The notes under the pieces were generated by a model that saw nothing but the letters and a program-made list of their open reading frames with translations, did no database searches and was not told where the DNA came from. The translations under genes and the position numbers were made by a program. Shown here in pieces: positions 21,915 to 32,206 of a DNA stretch of 44,979 nt. How positions within the stretch are numbered: the first letter of the stretch is position 1; each line of letters begins with the position of its first letter. The stretch comes from an uncultured Acidobacteriia bacterium. Lineage in GTDB: Bacteria > Acidobacteriota > Terriglobia > Bryobacterales > Bryobacteraceae. The stretch spans positions 1 to 44,979 of the forward strand of contig CAIRXZ010000074.1 in NCBI GenBank assembly GCA_903882645.1, given 5' to 3'.

Positions 21915-22366
21915 TGAATTCTCCCCTAACATAATAGACGAGACCTTCGCGCTTTCGGCGAATCGTTGTCTGCTGCCGGAACCAAGGATCTGGCATCCCG
22001 AACGGTGTTCCGCCAGCGCCGTGTACTCGTTAAGAACAGGTGTGTGGGCCTGGCTGAAATTGTCCCGCGCTCATGGCCTGATAGATCCTGGTAAACGCCC
22101 ATCACGGCAGTCCACCAAGCGCCATGCCCATCCACTTCGCCCAGCCGGCCGGCTCCTCACAGGAGTGCCCCGGCCTGGATTGCTGAACTCCCAAACGCCT
22201 CCTTTTCGCCGCACCCGCCCTCGCGATACTCTCCGGCATTCGCGCTCCGCGAAACAGGGCGAATTTGATTCACGCCAACTTTCAAAATATATTTCCTTCC
22301 CTATCAATCACTTCCAGCCCTCCCCTTCTCGGCTCTCCCGTGCTCCCCAGTTACCCTGAGCTTGAC
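21915..22366. other. Intergenic region
   Basis: Divergent upstream region of the DUF900 hydrolase and the 22367 gene. I see no convincing gene. The part from 22100 has GGCCGGC-rich inverted pieces (near 22143-22152), and an AT-rich tract at 22284-22300 may belong to a promoter. Confidence 0.5.
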
Positions 22367-23068
22367 ATGGCAACCTTACGCCAATTCGAGGCCAACCGCC
22401 TCAACGCTCAGAAGTCCACCGGGCCGCGCACCCCCGCTGGCAAACAGGCGTCCCGTTTCAACGCCCTCACTCTCGGCATCAACGCTCAATCCACCGTCAT
22501 CCCCGGCGAAAGCTCTCGGGATCTGGACATCCTCGGCGACGAATACCAAGACCAGTTCTGCCCCACCACCCCGGTCGAACGCTACCTCGTCGATACCCTC
22601 GTCACTTGCGACTGGGTCCGCCGCCGCCTCCACCGCGCCCAGGCCGATCTCTACCGCGTCCTGGCCGCCCGCACCGACCTTATAAACCCCCTCGGGTATA
22701 TCTGGAAGGAGGACACCGCCGGCGCCAACACCCTCCAGAAGGTGTTCCGCCAGCTCACCAGCCTGGATCGCAGCTACCACCGCGCACTCGCCGAGCTTCG
22801 CCGCCTCGCCCAGGAACGCAGCCAGGCCGAACCGGAGCCTGAAACCGAGCCGGAAGGCCCTGCACAACAGGAGATTCCCGTATCGAACCCCCCGCAAACT
22901 GGGGGAATTGGGTTCGTTCCGCCGATTCCCGATTTCGCCGATCGCCCCCTCGGGACCCTCCCCGGCCTGAAGCTGCGCCTGCCCTACCCGCCGATCTCCG
23001 CCACCTTCGGACGCCTCTCGACCGGCGAACCCATCGCCATCCACTGCCCGAAGGGCAGTCGCAAGTAA
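22367..23068 (+). CDS. Solibacter-type uncharacterised protein (Lys-Ser-Thr-Gly-Pro-Arg-Thr motif)
   Basis: A 233-residue protein of an uncharacterised family frequent in Acidobacteriota. The N-terminal half has the hallmark Asn-Arg-Leu-Asn-Ala-Gln-Lys-Ser-Thr-Gly-Pro-Arg-Thr-Pro at about 9-22, followed by Gly-Lys-Gln-Ala-Ser-Arg-Phe-Asn-Ala-Leu. A helical segment with Trp-Val-Arg-Arg-Arg-Leu-His-Arg-Ala-Gln lies in the middle. After about 150 it is low-complexity, Glu/Pro-rich and probably disordered. ATG 22367 was preferred because the motif follows directly; the frame is open upstream without a good start. Function unknown. Confidence 0.75.
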   Translation: MATLRQFEANRLNAQKSTGPRTPAGKQASRFNALTLGINAQSTVIPGESSRDLDILGDEYQDQFCPTTPVERYLVDTLVTCDWVRRRLHRAQADLYRVLAARTDLINPLGYIWKEDTAGANTLQKVFRQLTSLDRSYHRALAELRRLAQERSQAEPEPETEPEGPAQQEIPVSNPPQTGGIGFVPPIPDFADRPLGTLPGLKLRLPYPPISATFGRLSTGEPIAIHCPKGSRK

Positions 23069-23129: not shown

Positions 23130-23996
23130 GTGAAAATCAAGAAGGCGGTCATCACGGCCGCGGGGGAACAGCAGCGGTTGCTTCCGCTGCAAACCCTGAT
23201 CGACCGGGACGGAGAGGAAAAATCCGTTCTCGGGATCCTGATCGAGCAGGCTTTGGCCGCTCAAGCGGAAGAGGTCTGCGTGGTGGTATGGCCCGGGGAT
23301 GAGGCGCGCTACGCGCAGGCCGCCGCGCGGCATCTGGGCCACGTCCGCTTCGTTCCGCAACCGCGGCCTCTCGGGTACGGCCACGCGGTCTACTGTGCGC
23401 GGGAATTTGTGGCCGGCGACGCGTTCCTCCATCTGGTAGGGGACCACCTATGGGTGAGGCGCACGGCCGGCTCTTGCGCCCGCGACCTCGTCGAGCTCGC
23501 CGAAGCCGAACAGTGCGCCGTCTCGGCCGTGCAAGTCACCCGCGAGAACTTTCTGCCGCGCTACGGGGCCGTTGGCGGACGCCGCATTCCGGGACGCCAG
23601 GGGCTCTATCGGATCGAGACGGTGATCGAAAAGCCGACGCCCACCGAAGCCGAGCGGCGCCTCACCACGCCGGGACTCCGTGCGGGCTACTATCTTTGCT
23701 TCTTCGGCATGCACGTCTTCACGCCGGCCATCATGGATCTTCTCGGCCGGCAGCTCGCCGAAGCGCCGGATGCGCGCCTGGCTCTGTCCCCGGCTCTGGC
23801 CGAACTTGCCCGCCGGGAGCAATACCTGGCCGTCGAGGAAGATGCCCGCCGCTACGATATCGGCGCGCGCTACGGCCTGCTGGCCGCTCAACTCGCTCTG
23901 GCGCTCAACGGACGCGACCGCGCCGAGGTGCTGGCCCAGTTTGTGGAGTTGCTGGCCACGTGGGAGACGGGGGCCGCGGCCGGGGGCGAGCGGTGA
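23130..23996 (+). CDS. GalU-like sugar-1-phosphate nucleotidyltransferase, divergent
   Basis: A 288-residue protein of the nucleotidyltransferase fold. Residues 1-12 read [12 protein letters not shown], as in GalU. Later Tyr-Gly-Ala-Val near 147, Val-Ile-Glu-Lys-Pro-Thr-Pro near 168-174 and a Gly-Met-His-Val-Phe-Thr-Pro segment keep the family pattern. The normally invariant Gly-Leu-Gly-Thr-Arg is Gly-Glu-Gln-Gln-Arg, and the Pro-Lys substrate-binding lysine is not evident, so activity is doubtful or altered. GTG 23130 is preceded by GGAG at 7 bases. The stop overlaps the next gene's GTG by 4 bases, so the two are coupled. Confidence 0.75.
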
Positions 23997-26900
23997 GCGA
24001 GCTGATCGCGGTCATCGCTTCCCACGATCCCGCCGTCCGCGACCGGCCGCTCGATTCCTTCTGCCGCGGCGCCGCGCTCGATCGGCTCCTGGCGGAGTGC
24101 GAAGCCCTCGACCAGTTCCGGCGCGCCAGCGACAACCTCTACGAACGCGTGCGCGCGCTGTTCTTCCTGTACGCCATTCATCGGTTCCATATCCCGCGGG
24201 CCGTCGCCCAGGCGAAGCGCCCCGCGGGGGCTGGGCGGCGGATTCCCTTCTCCGGCTACGCCAACCTTCTCAAGCGCCGCTTTCACGAGGCTCTGGACAT
24301 TTTTCTGGCCGCGCAGGCCGCCGATGGGCCGGGCCCGGCTCTCTCCAGCGCCCTGGCCGCCGGCTACCGGGCGCTCGGATTTCAAACGCTGGCCGACCAG
24401 GTGCGCCGCAGCGTCCGCTCGGTGAGCGGCAACCAGTGGATGTTCCGCACCGGCCACCCGGCCGATTACCCGCTGCGCATCCGTCCGGAGTTGCTCGCGC
24501 GCCAAGGTTCCGACCCGCTGTTCCCCATCCTCCAGGAGGCCACGCCCGTGCGGATGGACCTCACCCACAGCGGATGGAGCGACATCTTCTTCCTGGGGAT
24601 GGATTTCCCGGAAGGGGCCAGGGTCCTCAACGTCTCGATCGATCTGAGCGTGCGCGGCGCCGGGACGGATGCCCCGCGGCCCCCCGTGGAGGCGTACTTC
24701 CGCGTGATCGACCAGCCCGTGCTGCGCCTGACCAGCGTGGACCTCAAGGCCGGCGTCGATATCGGCTCCATCGCCGAGGTCTTCGACTTCGCGCGCGACT
24801 ACCTGGGGCTGCTCAAGGCCGCGCTAATCGCTTCGGGCATCGTTCCTTCGGGCATGGAAGGCTGCAACCGCCCGCTCGCGGAACTGCTGGCCAAGCTGGT
24901 GGGCTTGCCCGGACACGGCATCGAAATCGTCAGCAAGGTGAACGACATTCCCAAAGGATCGCGCCTGGCGGTCTCCACCAGCCTGTTGAGCTGCCTGATT
25001 GCGGCGTGCATGCGGGCCACCGGCCAGATTCACGCGCTCACCGGCGGCCTGGATGAGGAAGACCGCCGCCTGGTGGCCGCGCGGGCGATCCTCGGGGAGT
25101 GGCTGGGCGGCTCCGGCGGGGGCTGGCAGGATTCCGGCGGCGTTTGGCCCGGCATCAAGTTGATTCATGGCGTGCTGGCCGGCGAAGGCGATCCCGAGTT
25201 CGGAATCAGCCGCGGGCGTCTGCTGCCCGGACATAAGGTGTTCGGGACCGATGAAGTCTCCCCCGCCGCGCGCGAACAACTGCGGCAAAGCTTGGTCCTG
25301 GTGCATGGCGGAATGGCCCAGGACGTCGGTCCGGTCCTGGAAATGGTGACCGAGAAGTACCTGTTGCGCTCGGAAGCCGAGTGGCAGGGGCGGCGCGAAG
25401 CCATACGCATTCTGGACGAGATCCTCGACCGGTTGAAGCGGGACGATATCCGCGGCATCGGAGCGAGAACCCACCGCAACTTCGACGGACCTATCCAGAC
25501 CATCATTCCCTGGGCCGGCAACCTGTACACGGATTCGCTCATTGAGCAGGCCCGCGCCGCCATGGGCGAGGATTTCTGGGGCTTCTGGATGCTGGGCGGC
25601 ATGTCCGGCGGCGGCATGGGGTTCTTGTTCTCTCCCCAACGGAAGGCGGCCGCCGAGGACCGGCTCGGGACCATCATGCGCGAGACCAAGCGGCGGCTCG
25701 AGCACGCCGTGCCTTTCGCCATGGACCCGGTGGTGTACGACTTCGCCATTAACGAGCGCGGGACCGCGTCGCGCCTCCTCTCCGGCGGCGCCGCGCTGCT
25801 TCCCGCCGATTACTACACGCTCGCCGTGCCGCCCCTGCTGCGCGCCGATTCCCGTCTGCTCTCGCCCGGCCGGCGGGCCGAACTCGACCGCTTCAGCGCC
25901 GCCTGCCATTCGGTTCCGGAGTTCTCCGGCATGGTGCAGCGGCTCTTCGAGCACATGCTGCCGCGCCGGCAGGCGGGCCGCGCCGGACAACAGGACAGTC
26001 TCGACCGCCTCCTGGCCGAGCACGGCTTCGACGCCGTACACCACGAGCGCATTCAAGCGGACCTGCGGGCCGGCCGCATCGGCCTGGCGCAGAACCGCCT
26101 GCCGGCCAACAGCAAAATCGAGGACCCCGCCCCCGAAACTATCTTCGACGCCACTGGCTGCCTGCCGCCGCGCTATCTGGAGACCGGCCGCGCGGCGCTG
26201 GCCGATGGAGCCGTAGCGGTGGTCTCGCTCGCGGGCGGCGTCGGGAGCCGATGGACCAAGGGGGCGGGCGTGGTTAAGGCTTTGAACCCCTTCTGCCGTC
26301 TGGGCGGGCGGCGCCGGAGCTTCCTCGAGGTCCACCTCGCCAAGAGCCTGCGCGTGGGCCGCGAGGCCGGAAAGTTGTTGCCCCACGTCATCACCACCAG
26401 CTATCTCACCCACCAGGCCATTGAAAGCTATCTGCGCGCCGAACGGAATTACGGATACCCCGGCCCGCTGTTGCTGTCCGGCGGGGGCGCCATCGGGCTG
26501 CGCATGACCCCCATGGAACGCGACCTGCGATTCGCATGGGAGGAAACCCCGCGGCAACTGCTGGACGAGCAGGCCCAGAAAGTCCAGGAGAGCCTGCAAG
26601 CCACTTTGATCGCCTGGGCCAAACAAGCCGGCGAGGGCGGCAACTACACCGATAACCTTCCCCTCCAGTGCCTGCATCCCGTGGGCCACTGGTACGAGGT
26701 TCCAAACCTGCTGCGCAACGGCACGCTGGCGGATCTGCTGGCCGGGCGGCCGGAGTTGAAGTACCTGATGGTCCACAACGTCGATACCGCCGGCGCGGAC
26801 GTCGACGCCGCGCTGCTCGGCTACCACATCGAGGAGGGCGCCGCCATGACGGCCGAGGTCATCGCGCGGCACATAGAAGATCGCGGCGGCGGACTGGCCT

Positions 26901-27346
26901 CGGTCGACGGGTCTGTGCGTCTGGTCGAGGGACTGGCGCTGCCCAGCGAGGAGATCGAATCCCGGCTTTCCTGGTACAACAGCGCCACCTACTGGATCGA
27001 TATCGGCCAGTTGCTTACGGTCTTCGGCCTTGAGCGGGACGACCTGGGCGACGCCGCCAAAGTCGCGGTGGCGATTCGCAACCTGGCCGCGCGCATGCCC
27101 ACCTATATCACCTTGAAGGATGTGAAGAAGCGCTGGGGCAAGGGTCAGGAAGACGTCTTCCCCGTCGCGCAGTTCGAGAAGCTGTGGGGCGACATGACCG
27201 CGCTGCCCGAATGGAAGTGCCGCTTCGCGCTGGTTCCGCGCGCGCGCGGCCAGCAACTGAAGGAGCCGGCCCAACTGGATGGCTGGCTGCGCGACGGATC
27301 GGCCGCCTACGTGGAATCCCTGTGCGGTTGGGCCGTGGCGGGATGA
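23993..27346 (+). CDS. GHMP sugar kinase (fucokinase-like) fused to UDP-sugar pyrophosphorylase
   Basis: A 1117-residue two-enzyme protein. The N-terminal about 630 residues match the fucokinase branch of GHMP kinases: [11 protein letters not shown] near 186-196, the phosphate loop [12 protein letters not shown] near 319-330, Gly-Gly-Gly-Trp-Gln-Asp near 375-380 with Trp-Pro-Gly-Ile-Lys, and [10 protein letters not shown] near 534-543. The C-terminal part is UDPGP-like: Gly-Gly-Val-Gly-Ser-Arg-Trp-Thr near 749-756, Gln-Cys-Leu-His-Pro-Val-Gly-His-Trp and Asn-Val-Asp-Thr-Ala-Gly-Ala-Asp near 929. The likely role is phosphorylating a free sugar at C1 and then transferring UMP. In bacterial and plant Fkp/FKGP proteins the domain order is the reverse and GTP is used. 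The start is GTG 23993, overlapping the GalU-like stop; the end overlaps the next ATG. Confidence 0.82.
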
Positions 27347-27982: not shown

Positions 27983-28189
27983 CTGGTTCTAGAAGCTCGG
28001 GATGGAAGAAGACGTCACGGATTTGCTACACCACCGCAGTGCCAGTTTCAGTGAAGAGCGCACTCTGGTTCCCAATCGGGGCCTGCGGTGTTCCCCTCTG
28101 ACCGGTGCGAATGTGCCCATTCCAGCTCAGTGCCACCTTGACAGTGGAGCGCCTGAGAGCTAGTATGGTACCAGTACTACTAGAACCAG
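27983..28189. repeat. Inverted-repeat-bounded element of unknown type
   Basis: CTGGTTCTAG (27983-27992) and CTAGAACCAG (28180-28189) are perfect 10-base complements 187 bases apart. The interior has no convincing gene. It could be a small non-autonomous element or the end of a lost insertion sequence. The whole of 27754-28245 otherwise holds no gene I can support. Confidence 0.4.
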
Positions 28190-28245
28190 GACGGGCTGGC
28201 CCGGATCAATTCCGATGACCGGAAAGGAGAGCGATAGAACCAGCC

Positions 28246-28443
28246 ATGGCGAAGACCAAACAGATTTCTGATGAGGAGGACGTTCCCGCCTTGCCGGAGT
28301 TGCTGAACCAGTTGAAGACGAAAGAGGGATTCGATAGGTTTCTGGAAGCGGCTGAACAGTTGGAGGAACGGGGAGTCGCTGAGCAGCCGCAGCGTGATGG
28401 CCGGATCATTGAAGAGGTCATGAACTTCCGCTACACGTTCTAG
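28246..28443 (+). CDS. Small acidic hypothetical protein
   Basis: A 65-residue soluble protein, rich in Glu and Asp, with two helical segments (Glu-Leu-Leu-Asn-Gln-Leu-Lys and Phe-Leu-Glu-Ala-Ala-Glu-Gln-Leu-Glu-Glu-Arg). An AAGGAG lies upstream, further from ATG 28246 than usual. A strong terminator sits 27 bases after its stop, which supports a real transcribed gene. The size and charge would suit an antitoxin or regulator, but nothing specific is recognised. Confidence 0.55.
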   Translation: MAKTKQISDEEDVPALPELLNQLKTKEGFDRFLEAAEQLEERGVAEQPQRDGRIIEEVMNFRYTF

Positions 28444-28470
28444 TTCAGGCGCCTACCTCCAAAGAATCGC

Positions 28471-28505
28471 GGCCGATGACTGAATTCAGTCATCGGCCTT
28501 TTTAT
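28471..28505 (+). terminator. Intrinsic terminator
   Basis: A perfect 12-bp stem GGCCGATGACTG / CAGTCATCGGCC around AATT (28471-28498), followed by TTTTTATT. It ends the 65-residue gene's transcript. The start codon of the next gene (28507) comes directly after the T run. Confidence 0.92.
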
Positions 28506-28506
28506 T

Positions 28507-30051
28507 ATGCCGATATCCTACGGGCCGTATTTCAAACTCCTCTATATGAAGGATGCGGAGGACACGCGCTACTTCCACAGCCTCTTCCCTCCCACCAACA
28601 GTGCTGCGGTCCCCCAGCTTTTTAAACTCTTCCTCCCGAATTGCAGCACTGTAGTCGTCGAAACGGAGTATATCGACACCGATTACCGCGCCTGTTACTC
28701 CCGTCTTTATTACCTCCGCCACGCTGATCTCCCCCGCCGCTGCACAAGGCTCCATTTCTTCAATGACGTGATATCTGCTGACGACCTTCTGGACCTCCCA
28801 GCCGACAAGCGCAAGAGTTACAGAGGATTCGTGGTTCTTCGCCCCCTTCCAGAATTCTGCCTAGGCCGCACGCTCCTATCCTACAAGCTCATCGAAGAGA
28901 TTATTGCCAAGCCAAACCCCATGACGTCCTTCTACCTCACGTGCGCTGCACAGTACAGCGTCAATCTCGCGGGCAACTCTATCGCTTTCACGGGAGCACC
29001 GTGGATACAACAGGATACGATGGTATCCGCCTGTGCGTCCGCTGCCATTTGGGTCGTCTCTTCTCACCTGAGCACGAAGTTCGGTACCGAGTTCAAGTCC
29101 TATACTACGCCCGCTATTACAGACCTGGCGACAAAGACCAACATCGACGGCGGGCGAGCTATGCCATCCGCCGGCCTCACAACGCAACAAATCATGTTCG
29201 CGCTACGAGAAATGGGCTGCGGACCGGTTCTGTACTCATCGTTTGATCTATCCTCGTATCACGAAGCCCGCAAGCAGCTTTATTATTACGTTGAGTCGGG
29301 AATCCCCGTCATACTCGGCCTTGAACTCGCCCATGGTGAAGGCCACGCAATCACCGTTGTCGGCCATGCCCTCGATCTCAACTCGAAGCCACGGCCTCAC
29401 GACATCGGTCCGATTGCGTGCTGTAGCAGCAGTGACTTCATTCCCGCATTCATCGCCCAAGACGACGTCGCTGGACCGTTCCGAGTTCTGGAGTTGTGTG
29501 ATTGGGGCCTAGCTGATCTCCTAGGAGAAAGACGGCGGCGCTGTGTGTGTCCGGTCAAGATCGGCGGCCACCAAGATGCGTTTCTGAGAGCGTTAATAAT
29601 TCCGCTCCCCCTGGATGTTACGCTGCGTGGGGACGAAGCCGAGCGCCGCACGATGAAAAGTGTCGCTCAGTGGTTCCGTACCAGCAAGACGCCAGACGAT
29701 GTTATGGTGTTTCGAACCTTCTTGGAGCAATCAAACTCATTCAAGACTCGATTTCTAGATGGCTTGCCCCAGGAACTCAGCGTACAGCTTCGTAGACAGT
29801 TGATGCCTCGATGGGTATGGGTCACGGAAGTTGCAGGCCTAGCTGGCTACAAGCAACCCAGACGTCACGCGATAGGGCACTGGGTGCATGATTCCGCAGG
29901 AATCCCAAAGAGTAAGGCCACCAGCCTGGATGTCGTGTTATGGCACATGCCTGGTTTTTTCCGCGCGCTCCAGCCCAACGGGGATCCGTCTGTGGAGCTT
30001 GTGGACTATGATTCTTTTCCAAGATATCACCGGTACAGTCATGATGACTAG
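28507..30051 (+). CDS. Uncharacterised protein with papain/C39-like cysteine peptidase fold
   Basis: A 514-residue cytoplasmic protein without signal or membrane helix. The middle shows a cysteine-peptidase-like layout: Trp-Ile-Gln-Gln-Asp (Gln169) seven residues before Cys176 in Ser-Ala-Cys-Ala-Ser-Ala-Ala-Ile-Trp, then Val-Glu-Ser-Gly-Ile-Pro-Val-Ile-Leu-Gly and Gly-His-Ala-Ile-Thr-Val-Val-Gly-His (His280), and a later Gln-Asp-Asp (319-320) that could orient the His. An N-terminal domain with Arg-Gly-Phe-Val-Val-Leu-Arg-Pro-Leu-Pro (106-115) and a C-terminal about 180-residue region are unassigned. Catalysis is inferred from motif spacing only. ATG 28507 touches the terminator; ATG 28546 is an alternative. 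Neither has a clear ribosome-binding site. GC content is lower than the neighbouring housekeeping genes. Confidence 0.65.
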   Translation: MPISYGPYFKLLYMKDAEDTRYFHSLFPPTNSAAVPQLFKLFLPNCSTVVVETEYIDTDYRACYSRLYYLRHADLPRRCTRLHFFNDVISADDLLDLPADKRKSYRGFVVLRPLPEFCLGRTLLSYKLIEEIIAKPNPMTSFYLTCAAQYSVNLAGNSIAFTGAPWIQQDTMVSACASAAIWVVSSHLSTKFGTEFKSYTTPAITDLATKTNIDGGRAMPSAGLTTQQIMFALREMGCGPVLYSSFDLSSYHEARKQLYYYVESGIPVILGLELAHGEGHAITVVGHALDLNSKPRPHDIGPIACCSSSDFIPAFIAQDDVAGPFRVLELCDWGLADLLGERRRRCVCPVKIGGHQDAFLRALIIPLPLDVTLRGDEAERRTMKSVAQWFRTSKTPDDVMVFRTFLEQSNSFKTRFLDGLPQELSVQLRRQLMPRWVWVTEVAGLAGYKQPRRHAIGHWVHDSAGIPKSKATSLDVVLWHMPGFFRALQPNGDPSVELVDYDSFPRYHRYSHDD

Positions 30052-30233
30052 GTAACACGTGTATTAGATTGGTAAAGTGAAGATGGTGCGCATTTCTATT
30101 GTCGGCGGCATTGCCGAGCGCCGGCGGCGGAAGCAAGATGTGGTAAGGCATCGGAGCCAGAAAACGCGAACGAGAAACCGTCGGCGTAATCTAAATCGAT
30201 CAGCAATCACAGCGCCGACGTGAGGAGGCAACT

Positions 30234-30935
30234 ATGGCGTTCAGGATAGACCCCTTATCTACGGTTGCGGCGTTCGGAACACTCGCATCGGCCGCTTCGA
30301 CGATTCTCGGATATGCAGTTCACAACTGGAAATCGAGGCCCGGGCATCGCGGTCCGCTTCATGATGATGCAAGTGCATCGGCAAGCGTAGTTCTGCGGGC
30401 CTCTGGGCTTGAGGATACGGAGACCGGCGTTGAGGATAGCCAAGTCGGCATGCGTGGCGTTGGGCTATTATCATCTCTGCAGGATCGGTTAGCACCTGAA
30501 CCACATCCCGGGCGGCCTCGAACGCCTGCGTCAATTCTGCTGCTTGGGTTTTGCGGAGTTCTTTTTGCTGTCGGCGTTCCAACGCTCATATATTATTGGA
30601 AGGCGATAATAAGCAATACTGATAATCTGATATTCGGCATCTGGTTGTTCCTGACGATGGTCTTTGGGATGTTTGTCCAGGTGATGGTCGATAACCACGA
30701 GTCAGGACGCGCAATACTCGACATCCGGCTGTGGGACTTTCTCTTCCCGTTGTTCTTTTCACTTGTTGTTTACTACTCCATCTGGTCGGTTGCGGCAACG
30801 GCGCCGCGCGGCTTGTTTTCGTTTTATGCAGCGTTCCTCAATGGATACTTCTGGAGGCATGTCGTTGCGCAGGCGAGGCCGAGTTTGGCTGGCCATAGGA
30901 CCGGAAATGATGACCAAGTTGCGCCCAATAATTGA
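30234..30935 (+). CDS. Uncharacterised multi-pass membrane protein
   Basis: A 233-residue protein. A weak hydrophobic helix spans 8-29, then a polar linker of about 70 residues, then clear helices at about 99-121, 131-152 and 167-187, with a possible further one at 193-205. GAGGAGG lies 7 bases before ATG 30234, one of the best ribosome-binding sites in the window. It follows the peptidase-like gene in the same direction with a 182-base gap that holds no gene, so cotranscription is possible but not shown. No family recognised. Confidence 0.7.
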   Translation: MAFRIDPLSTVAAFGTLASAASTILGYAVHNWKSRPGHRGPLHDDASASASVVLRASGLEDTETGVEDSQVGMRGVGLLSSLQDRLAPEPHPGRPRTPASILLLGFCGVLFAVGVPTLIYYWKAIISNTDNLIFGIWLFLTMVFGMFVQVMVDNHESGRAILDIRLWDFLFPLFFSLVVYYSIWSVAATAPRGLFSFYAAFLNGYFWRHVVAQARPSLAGHRTGNDDQVAPNN

Positions 30936-31100: not shown

Positions 31101-32060
31101 TTATTTCCCGCCAGCGTACTTCTTCCACATCGCCTCAATATCCGCGGTCTGCGCATCACCGAGGTGAATCACCACACGGTAGCGGAAGCGCAGGGTCTTG
31201 CCGGCCTCCAGGTTTATGTCGCCGCTCCGCGACTTGTCGTTCGTGAAGGCCGAAAGGCCGAAAGGATTGGCGCCGAACAACCCGTATGCTCGGACGTGCC
31301 AGCGAACCGGGTGGCTCGGGTTCAGCGGGTTATCGAGAATCGCGATTCCGAGTTTCTCACCGGCGATTTCGCCCGAATAGTCGCACCAGTTCGCTGGCTT
31401 GCCCCAGGTCTGCTTTTCCGTCTCAAGGCCGTCGGAATTGGTGATGTGGCCGCTTCCGTGGTCCTCTTGCAGCACGGGCCGGATGCGCAGCGCGAATCCG
31501 CTGTCCTTGGAATCCCCCAAGGTGGTCTTCACGATGGCCGTGAGCGTAATGTCGAAATCGATGGTGCGCAGTTTGGCGTCGTCATAGAACGTCATCGCGC
31601 GATCTTCCCTCAGCGCCGGCGCGCCCTTGAGATCGGTCCAGTCGAACGTCGCGGCGATGGATCCCGATTTCTTTCCGCTCTTGACGGCGCCGAGCTTCTT
31701 CAGAACGATCTTTCCGCGGTTCGGCGTGGTGTAGGAGGCTTCATTGTTCCAGAAGTCCAGCCCGTTCACTTTTTCAATGGCGAACCAAAGGCCGCGTTGA
31801 TGCAAGTGGTCTTTTTGGTCCTTCGCCTCTTCGGCGACGTTCTCCATGGGCCACATGCGTGTCACGTACGTTCCCGAGGCGGCGCGCAACGGGTGAAGAT
31901 ACGGTTTGGCGACGTCCGTTCCGGCGACGCGAAACTCGGTGAAGGGCTTGCCGCCGATCTCGACGGCGATCTTCTCCGGCCCCGGCGTAATCCGAACCTG
32001 TCCGATAACCGGCGCGGCCAAAACGGCCAGAACAAGAGCGAGCTTGGCTTGAGCGTTCAT
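31101..32060 (-). CDS. PmoA-family (DUF6807) protein, exported
   Basis: A 319-residue protein with a signal peptide (Met-Asn-Ala-Gln-Ala-Lys-Leu-Ala-Leu-Val-Leu-Ala-Val-Leu-Ala-Ala-Pro-Val-Ile-Gly) cleaved about residue 21. The mature part matches the so-called methane oxygenase PmoA family: Lys-Pro-Tyr-Leu-His-Pro-Leu, Asp-His-Leu-His-Gln-Arg-Gly-Leu-Trp-Phe-Ala, and a late Arg-Tyr-Arg-Val-Val-Ile-His. The family name is misleading; these proteins are not methane monooxygenase and occur beside sugar catabolism genes. I place the start at 32060 because the signal begins there; the frame continues upstream without meaning. The following sugar isomerase is upstream in the same direction. Confidence 0.82.
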   Translation of the reverse strand: MNAQAKLALVLAVLAAPVIGQVRITPGPEKIAVEIGGKPFTEFRVAGTDVAKPYLHPLRAASGTYVTRMWPMENVAEEAKDQKDHLHQRGLWFAIEKVNGLDFWNNEASYTTPNRGKIVLKKLGAVKSGKKSGSIAATFDWTDLKGAPALREDRAMTFYDDAKLRTIDFDITLTAIVKTTLGDSKDSGFALRIRPVLQEDHGSGHITNSDGLETEKQTWGKPANWCDYSGEIAGEKLGIAILDNPLNPSHPVRWHVRAYGLFGANPFGLSAFTNDKSRSGDINLEAGKTLRFRYRVVIHLGDAQTADIEAMWKKYAGGK

Positions 32061-32140
32061 CTCAGTTAGATCATGACCGAAACCACGGCCGGAATCAAAC
32101 CGCAGTTGGGTTGCGATTCCAGCCCGAAGGGCGCCAGATA

Positions 32141-32206
32141 GTAGCCCATGGCGCAAGCCATGGGAACAGGGCGAGCACGGAAAGCCCCCGGAGGGGGCGA
32201 AAGAAC
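32141..32206. repeat. Dispersed 'GTAGCCC' palindromic repeat, copy A
   Basis: GTAGCCCATGGCGCAAGCCA followed by an AAAGCCCCCGGAGGGGGCGAAAGA hairpin-like segment. A related copy lies at 33401-33500. It sits between two same-strand genes and could form RNA hairpins there. Confidence 0.7.

What the first reader, a model, noticed from the sequence alone, without database searches (positions are those of the whole stretch)
28507..30935. Candidate undescribed module: papain/C39-like cytosolic protein plus multi-pass membrane protein
The 514-residue protein shows Gln169/Cys176/His280 spacing of a cysteine peptidase, with unassigned domains on both sides. The next gene is a membrane protein of unknown family with a strong ribosome-binding site. 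Both sit in a lower-GC segment that begins at a broken ABC gene and an inverted-repeat element. A peptidase-effector with a membrane partner would resemble a stress or defence pair, but no function is proven.
Basis: inference. Interest (0 to 1): 0.65.

Follow-up and report, generated by a model that had tools for sequence, protein, structure and literature searches.

The report
Small-protein plus papain-like protease pair
The flagged gene is a papain-like protease that, across bacteria and archaea, almost always sits beside a tiny gene for a ~60-residue protein with a conserved tail, which looks like an unnamed mobile protease-and-regulator pair, probably used in defence, while the neighbouring membrane protein is not part of it.

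Summary
The 514-aa protein is a genuine papain-fold (C39-like) cysteine protease with an intact Gln169/Cys176/His280/Asp319 active site, and it belongs to a large family unnamed in Pfam, NCBIfam, PADLOC and PHROGs: at least 267 relatives in one scan, in many bacterial phyla and archaea. The membrane protein has no recurrent link to the family (0 of 75 homologous loci). It has a conserved, stop-anchored C-terminal tail (V-[DS]-x-E-x-L-x-x-x-hydrophobic-[TS]-hydrophobic-end). Leave-one-out scoring ranks the adjacent small ORF first in 66 of 79 loci; the window's ranks first of 460 ORFs. An intrinsic terminator separates the two genes in 10 of 18 loci with room for one, the window included, so the small protein should be made in excess. 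The pair lies in mobile and defence-rich regions and repeatedly beside multiubiquitin/E1/JAB cassettes. Most likely the small protein restrains a cytosolic, defence-type protease, as staphostatin restrains staphopain. Co-inheritance and architecture are shown; inhibition and defence are inferred. New variant of a known kind.

The parts
28138..28166 (+). promoter-like site (TTGACA-17-TAGTAT) 80 nt upstream of the small gene
   Evidence: number found equals chance expectation, so only suggestive
28246..28443 (+). small partner gene, 65 aa from ATG (or 50 aa from TTG 28291, which has a better Shine-Dalgarno), C-terminus ...DGRIIEEVMNFRYTF
   Evidence: leave-one-out stop-anchored profile ranks it 1st of 460 ORFs in the window (12.9 vs 1.3 for the next)
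28471..28505 (+). intrinsic terminator (12-14 bp stem GGCCGATGACTGAATTCAGTCATCGGCC, then TTTTTATT) between small gene and protease gene
   Evidence: same position in 9 other loci
28507..30051 (+). papain-fold (C39-like) cysteine protease, 514 aa, no signal peptide evident
29011..29013 (+). Gln169 (oxyanion-hole Gln)
   Evidence: invariant in A4
29032..29034 (+). Cys176 (catalytic)
   Evidence: invariant in A4
29344..29346 (+). His280 (catalytic)
   Evidence: invariant in A4
29461..29466 (+). Asp319-Asp320 (third catalytic residue; [HQ]DDxxGP motif)
   Evidence: invariant in A4; the preceding family His is Gln in the window

Best explanation
28246-30051 is a horizontally moving two-gene module: a ~60-residue, mostly helical small protein and a cytosolic papain-fold (C39-like) cysteine protease with family-specific domains on both sides of the catalytic core. 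The small protein most likely binds the protease with its helices and lays its conserved C-terminal tail along or near the active-site cleft, keeping the protease silent. The terminator between the genes makes the small protein in excess of the protease. When the small protein is removed, displaced or altered, probably during phage or plasmid attack, the protease is released and cuts cellular or invader proteins (abortive-infection or toxin-antitoxin logic). SHOWN: papain fold and active site, co-inheritance, tail conservation, terminator. INFERRED: physical binding, inhibition, trigger, target, defence role.
For: Catalytic residues invariant in 61 diverse homologues. PF13529 Peptidase_C39_2 hits 12 of 66 members, best 3.9e-5. 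Fold matches: ComA C39 domain, UfSP, staphopain, BpJOS. Small ORF adjacent to the protease in nearly all loci: rank 1 in 66/79 by leave-one-out; 65 of 65 profile hits at E<=0.01 among 11,964 ORFs lie there, training rows included; the untrained locus L129 scores 25.8; in L019 it lies just downstream instead. Purifying selection on the small ORF, dN/dS 0.07-0.15 in five close pairs. Terminator in 10/18 gaps of >=30 nt against 0.06 expected and 1/45 control gaps. Joint model of one pair: small-protein helices at pLDDT ~90, tail Phe in a beta bridge. E. coli allele in 19 genomes has lost Cys and His (both Tyr) and its small protein's tail reads SYEA instead of SYSL. Setting: integrative element at tRNA-Pro beside an ABC-three-component system; an E. 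coli island with TIR, FRG and restriction genes; conjugative plasmids; caspase/helicase and TrlF neighbours.
Against: No binding, inhibition, toxicity or phage-protection data. The joint model gave no coordinates or interface score, and tail confidence is only moderate (about 66). Many loci have 0-20 nt between the genes and no room for a terminator. Three loci (L002, L006, L073) have no recognisable tail-bearing ORF. Tail/active-site co-change rests on one E. coli lineage. Some neighbourhoods are housekeeping.
Confidence: 0.5

Rival explanations
1. Ubiquitin-like-system accessory: the protease is a UfSP-like processing or deconjugating enzyme (or effector) that works with bacterial multiubiquitin-E1/JAB-E2-DUF6527 cassettes, the small protein being an adaptor.
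For: Such a cassette (or its E1) lies close by in 15 of 80 loci, 10 independent groups, on either side and strand; Multi_ubiq occurs in only 13 of 297 genomes of the phylum; the window model's top fold hit is UfSP, and BpJOS ubiquitin clippase is also listed.
Against: 65 of 80 loci have none nearby, and the window's own genome has no Multi_ubiq or DUF6527 hit. Catalytic order is C-H-D, not the Asp-Pro-His box of UfSP (PMC10318531). JAB already supplies a deconjugase. Shared defence islands could cause the linkage.
Confidence: 0.2
2. The small protein is the protease's substrate or precursor (matured peptide or signal), and excess small protein means excess substrate.
For: Terminator after the small gene is typical of precursor genes made in excess; C39-type enzymes process leader peptides; N-terminal parts of the small proteins vary.
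Against: The conserved part is the extreme C-terminus, ending at the stop with no variable core and no double glycine; no recurrent transporter or modification gene among neighbours.
Confidence: 0.17
3. Small protein is a conjugatable modifier (Pup-like) and the protease attaches or removes it.
For: Size near 60 aa, conserved C-terminus, UfSP-like fold hit, Ubl-cassette neighbours.
Against: C-terminal residue is bulky and hydrophobic, not Gly or Gln/Glu; no dedicated ligase co-occurs.
Confidence: 0.05
4. One reading: protease plus multi-pass membrane protein.
For: Adjacent on the same strand, same low-GC segment.
Against: 0 of 75 homologous loci have a membrane protein next door; no convincing homologue of the membrane protein found there.
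Confidence: 0.02

Closest known systems
Staphopain-staphostatin and C10 protease-Bfi/Bti pairs (papain-fold protease with a genetically linked small inhibitor)
   Same: Papain fold (staphopain is the top fold hit of the pair model); small linked gene; likely excess of the small partner; staphostatin blocks the cleft in substrate direction (PMC7863939).
   Different: Staphopain is secreted with a propeptide and staphostatin is a beta-barrel; Bfi/Bti are 116-138 aa, mostly beta (PMC3462683). Here the protease is cytosolic with flanking domains, and the partner is about 60 aa, helical, with a conserved free C-terminal tail.
Peptidase_C39_2 (PF13529) and C39 leader peptidases
   Same: Core fold and Gln/Cys/His/Asp active site; weak Pfam hits in 12 of 66 members.
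   Different: No ABC-transporter fusion, no double-glycine substrate; large N- and C-terminal domains; the window protein itself has no Pfam hit.
UFM1-specific proteases UfSP1/UfSP2 (C78)
   Same: Best fold match of the window model; Ubl cassettes lie beside some members.
   Different: Catalytic order C-H-D instead of C-D-H with Asp-Pro-His box; no Ubl cassette found in the host genome.
Type II toxin-antitoxin systems
   Same: Small gene first, larger enzyme second, tight spacing, likely excess of the small protein, horizontal spread.
   Different: Toxicity and neutralisation untested; no DNA-binding domain recognised in the small protein.

Membership tests
Papain-fold (clan CA) cysteine peptidase, C39-like | Oxyanion Gln, catalytic Cys, His and Asp/Asn in order | tested here: met
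   Q169, C176, H280, D319 invariant in 61 homologues
Papain-fold (clan CA) cysteine peptidase, C39-like | Papain-like core fold | tested here: met
   AlphaFold pLDDT 80.6; Foldseek ComA TMt 0.70, staphopain TMt 0.58-0.62, UfSP E 3e-4
Papain-fold (clan CA) cysteine peptidase, C39-like | Significant profile match of the window protein to a named family | tested here: not met
   No Pfam, NCBIfam, PADLOC or PHROGs family for the window protein; PF13529 in 12/66 relatives
Papain-fold (clan CA) cysteine peptidase, C39-like | Peptide-bond hydrolysis | not testable with these tools
   needs an assay
UfSP (C78) | Asp-Pro-His box after Cys (C-D-H order) | tested here: not met
   Order is C176, H280, D319; motif HDDxxGP
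Staphopain-staphostatin type pair | Small linked gene conserved with the protease | tested here: met
Staphopain-staphostatin type pair | Secreted protease with propeptide; beta-barrel inhibitor of about 110 aa | tested here: not met
   No signal peptide seen; partner about 60 aa and helical in the model
Staphopain-staphostatin type pair | Small protein inhibits the protease | not testable with these tools
   no binding or activity data
Type II toxin-antitoxin | Toxin harms the cell and the antitoxin neutralises it | not testable with these tools
   needs expression test
Bacterial ubiquitin-like (multiubiquitin/Bil/Bub) system | Ubl, E1 and partners in the same locus or genome | tested here: not met
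   Own genome: no Multi_ubiq or DUF6527 hit; present beside 15 of 80 relatives
Known anti-phage system | Match to a PADLOC model | tested here: not met

The most novel reading that the evidence does not exclude
A previously unnamed, pan-prokaryotic immune protease: a C39/UfSP-like enzyme locked by a trans-acting tail peptide and, in a subset of hosts, wired to bacterial ubiquitin-like conjugation so that conjugation or deconjugation triggers or tunes it.
Probability: 0.2. Interest if true: 0.85.

Novelty: new variant of a known kind. Interest (0 to 1): 0.62.

Why it matters
If right, this is a widespread but unannotated protease module (at least 267 relatives in one lower-bound scan of species genomes, plus 20 of 5,426 complete E. 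coli genomes) whose second gene is missed because it is tiny. It would add a protease/tail-peptide pair to the repertoire of prokaryotic conflict systems, offer a new mode of papain-fold control by a short C-terminal tail, and link papain-fold enzymes to bacterial ubiquitin-like cassettes. A naturally intact and a naturally inactive allele in E. coli make it directly testable.

Tried and rejected
Membrane protein as partner: rejected. Direct database naming of the window protein: nothing in Pfam, PADLOC, NCBIfam, PHROGs or PDB sequence. Single-sequence scan of genome contigs: nothing; the profile scan worked. Phage-encoded origin: no match in 50,697 phage records, although a few IMG/VR contigs carry it. 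Obligatory ubiquitin-like component: rejected for this host (the PF14452 search rang in no control genome, though it does ring in relatives). A local HMM of the small protein did not detect the window's small ORF; the stop-anchored leave-one-out profile did. RiPP precursor: no transporter or modification genes recur. Literature: no paper in the held library names six accessions of the pair; the staphostatin papers gave the closest analogue.

Full report
WHAT IS THERE. The next gene, 30234-30935, is a multi-pass membrane protein with a strong Shine-Dalgarno. The segment is GC-poor (54-56% against 60-69% for most of the window) and starts at an ABC ATPase cut after about 90 codons. In a same-genus genome the gene to the right of the segment is followed directly by katG, so the segment is variable DNA.

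THE PROTEASE. The window protein matches no Pfam, NCBIfam, PADLOC or PHROGs family and no PDB sequence significantly. tblastn found 25-29% relatives on four plasmids, and a profile scan of one genome per species found 267 relatives in many bacterial phyla and in archaea, a lower bound because the scan needs exact short patterns. Across 61 members the Gln, Cys, His and Asp-Asp positions are invariant, as are family motifs in the N-terminal domain (E52, Y55, Y68, R81, H83, Y105, G107). PF13529 (Peptidase_C39_2) hits 12 of 66 members, best 3.9e-5. The AlphaFold model (61-row alignment, pLDDT 80.6, pTM 0.85) matches UfSP, the ComA C39 domain, staphopain, phytochelatin synthase and the BpJOS ubiquitin clippase. 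A second family member's model matches staphopain best. It is therefore a papain-fold enzyme. The catalytic order is Cys-His-Asp, as in C39 and papain, not the Asp-Pro-His box of UfSP (PMC10318531). There is one copy in the genome.

THE REAL PARTNER. All four annotated plasmid relatives have a 52-60 aa ORF 55-85 bp upstream, and so does nearly every other locus. These proteins diverge at the N-terminus but share a tail that ends exactly at the stop codon: hydrophobic at -11, Asp/Ser at -10, Glu/Lys at -8, Leu at -6, hydrophobic at -2, Thr/Ser at -1 and hydrophobic at 0. A tail profile trained without the tested locus and without similar tails ranks the ORF next to the protease first in 66 of 79 loci, against up to several hundred other ORFs per locus. 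In the window, which was never in the training set, ORF 28246-28443 (...RIIEEVMNFRYTF) ranks first of 460 (12.9 against 1.3). Locus L129, fetched later and not used in training, scores 25.8 at the expected place, and in L019 the small ORF lies downstream of the protease instead. Several of the 13 other loci have the tail by eye with one or two extra residues (L036, L039, L044, L088). No convincing tail-bearing ORF was found for L002, L006 or L073. Caveat: the seed tails were picked by a motif I wrote after seeing upstream ORFs; leave-one-out and L129 are the independent parts. Five close pairs give dN/dS of 0.07-0.15 for the small ORF, so it is a translated gene under purifying selection.

TERMINATOR BETWEEN THE GENES. 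Of 18 loci with at least 30 nt between the genes, 10 hold an intrinsic terminator there, against 0.06 expected from base-shuffled sequence and 1 of 45 other same-strand gaps of 30-130 nt in the same loci. Two E. coli alleles have it as well. In the window it is a perfect 14-bp palindrome followed by T5, ending directly before the protease ATG. The expected effect is more small protein than protease. In other loci the genes are only 0-20 nt apart, so this is recurrent, not universal.

THE MEMBRANE PROTEIN IS NOT PART OF IT. None of 75 homologous loci has a multi-pass membrane protein as next same-strand gene, and the window's membrane protein has no convincing relative in those loci, in plasmids or in 40 related genomes.

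NEIGHBOURHOOD. The most frequent neighbour by far is the multiubiquitin (PF14452) / ThiF-JAB / Prok-E2_E / DUF6527 cassette: 15 of 80 loci, 10 independent groups at 60% identity, on both sides and both strands. Multi_ubiq occurs in 13 of 297 genomes of the window's phylum, so about 0.01 would be expected in the 1.2 Mb examined (rates in other phyla were not measured). The window's own genome has no Multi_ubiq or DUF6527 match, so the cassette is a frequent companion, not a requirement. Other neighbours include caspase-like, AAA, ImmA/IrrE, restriction-like and several PADLOC families, mixed with housekeeping genes. No matched background was run for those, so "defence-rich" is an impression. 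In E. coli (20 of 5,426 genomes) 19 copies are one integrative element at tRNA-Pro next to an ABC-three-component system, and one lies in an island with TIR, FRG, toxin-antitoxin and restriction genes. PGAP annotates both genes as hypothetical.

HOW IT PROBABLY WORKS. To look at the pair together I modelled one member (L025) from the read-through translation of small gene, native spacer and protease, stops read as Gly, an artificial linkage, with 24 such rows among 53. The small protein folds as two confident helices (pLDDT about 90). Its tail is of moderate confidence, and the tail Phe is placed in a beta bridge whose partner the tool does not report. pTM is 0.90. This is compatible with tail docking but does not prove it. 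A natural experiment points the same way: in the tRNA-Pro E. coli allele both catalytic Cys and His have become Tyr, and the tail of its small protein reads SYEA where the intact E. coli allele has SYSL. That is one lineage only. A small gene conserved with the protease, probably made in excess and ending in a conserved free tail fits an inhibitor or antitoxin best. Genetically linked inhibitors are a known theme for bacterial papain-fold proteases (PMC3462683), and staphostatin blocks staphopain in substrate direction (PMC7863939). Those systems protect the cell from secreted proteases; here the enzyme appears cytosolic and travels with mobile and defence genes, so I favour release of a self-acting protease during attack. 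Fold, pairing, tail conservation and terminator are shown. Binding, inhibition, trigger, targets and defence are inferred.

VERDICT. Observation confirmed; interpretation partly supported: the protease is right, the partner wrong, and defence plausible but unproven. Novelty: new variant of a known kind (papain-fold protease with a linked small regulator), with an unnamed protease family and an unnamed small-protein family.

Noticed in passing
L099 14760-17049 (E. coli W2-5, integrative element at tRNA-Pro; 19 genomes): Full-length protease ORF in which catalytic Cys and His are both Tyr, with the small partner and terminator kept and the partner's tail changed to SYEA; looks like a natural pseudoenzyme.
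   Followed up: partly
L004 5878-8058, L005 5848-8007, L010 7863-9950, L100 15001-17079: A subfamily of about 690-730 aa carries an extra C-terminal domain with motif GHPxLTGxxxARIxGE...SGRYS, absent from the window protein; domain not identified.
   Followed up: no
window 32121-32164 (-): Rfam Acido-Lenti-1 small RNA (40.4 bits, above the gathering score), overlapping the predicted start of ORF 31101-32156; consistent with an acidobacterial host.
   Followed up: no
window 27983-27992 and 28182-28191: Perfect 10-bp inverted repeat CTGGTTCTAG / CTAGAACCAG about 190 bp apart just upstream of the module; could be the remnant of a small element.
   Followed up: no
window 23133-23460 and 23450-27346: A sugar-nucleotidyltransferase-like reading frame starting at about 23133 seems to shift frame near 23455, before the 1298-aa ORF; frameshift or assembly error not checked.
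   Followed up: no
window 22001-23000: Unusually strong GC skew (-0.266) compared with the rest of the window, over a short C-rich gene.
   Followed up: no
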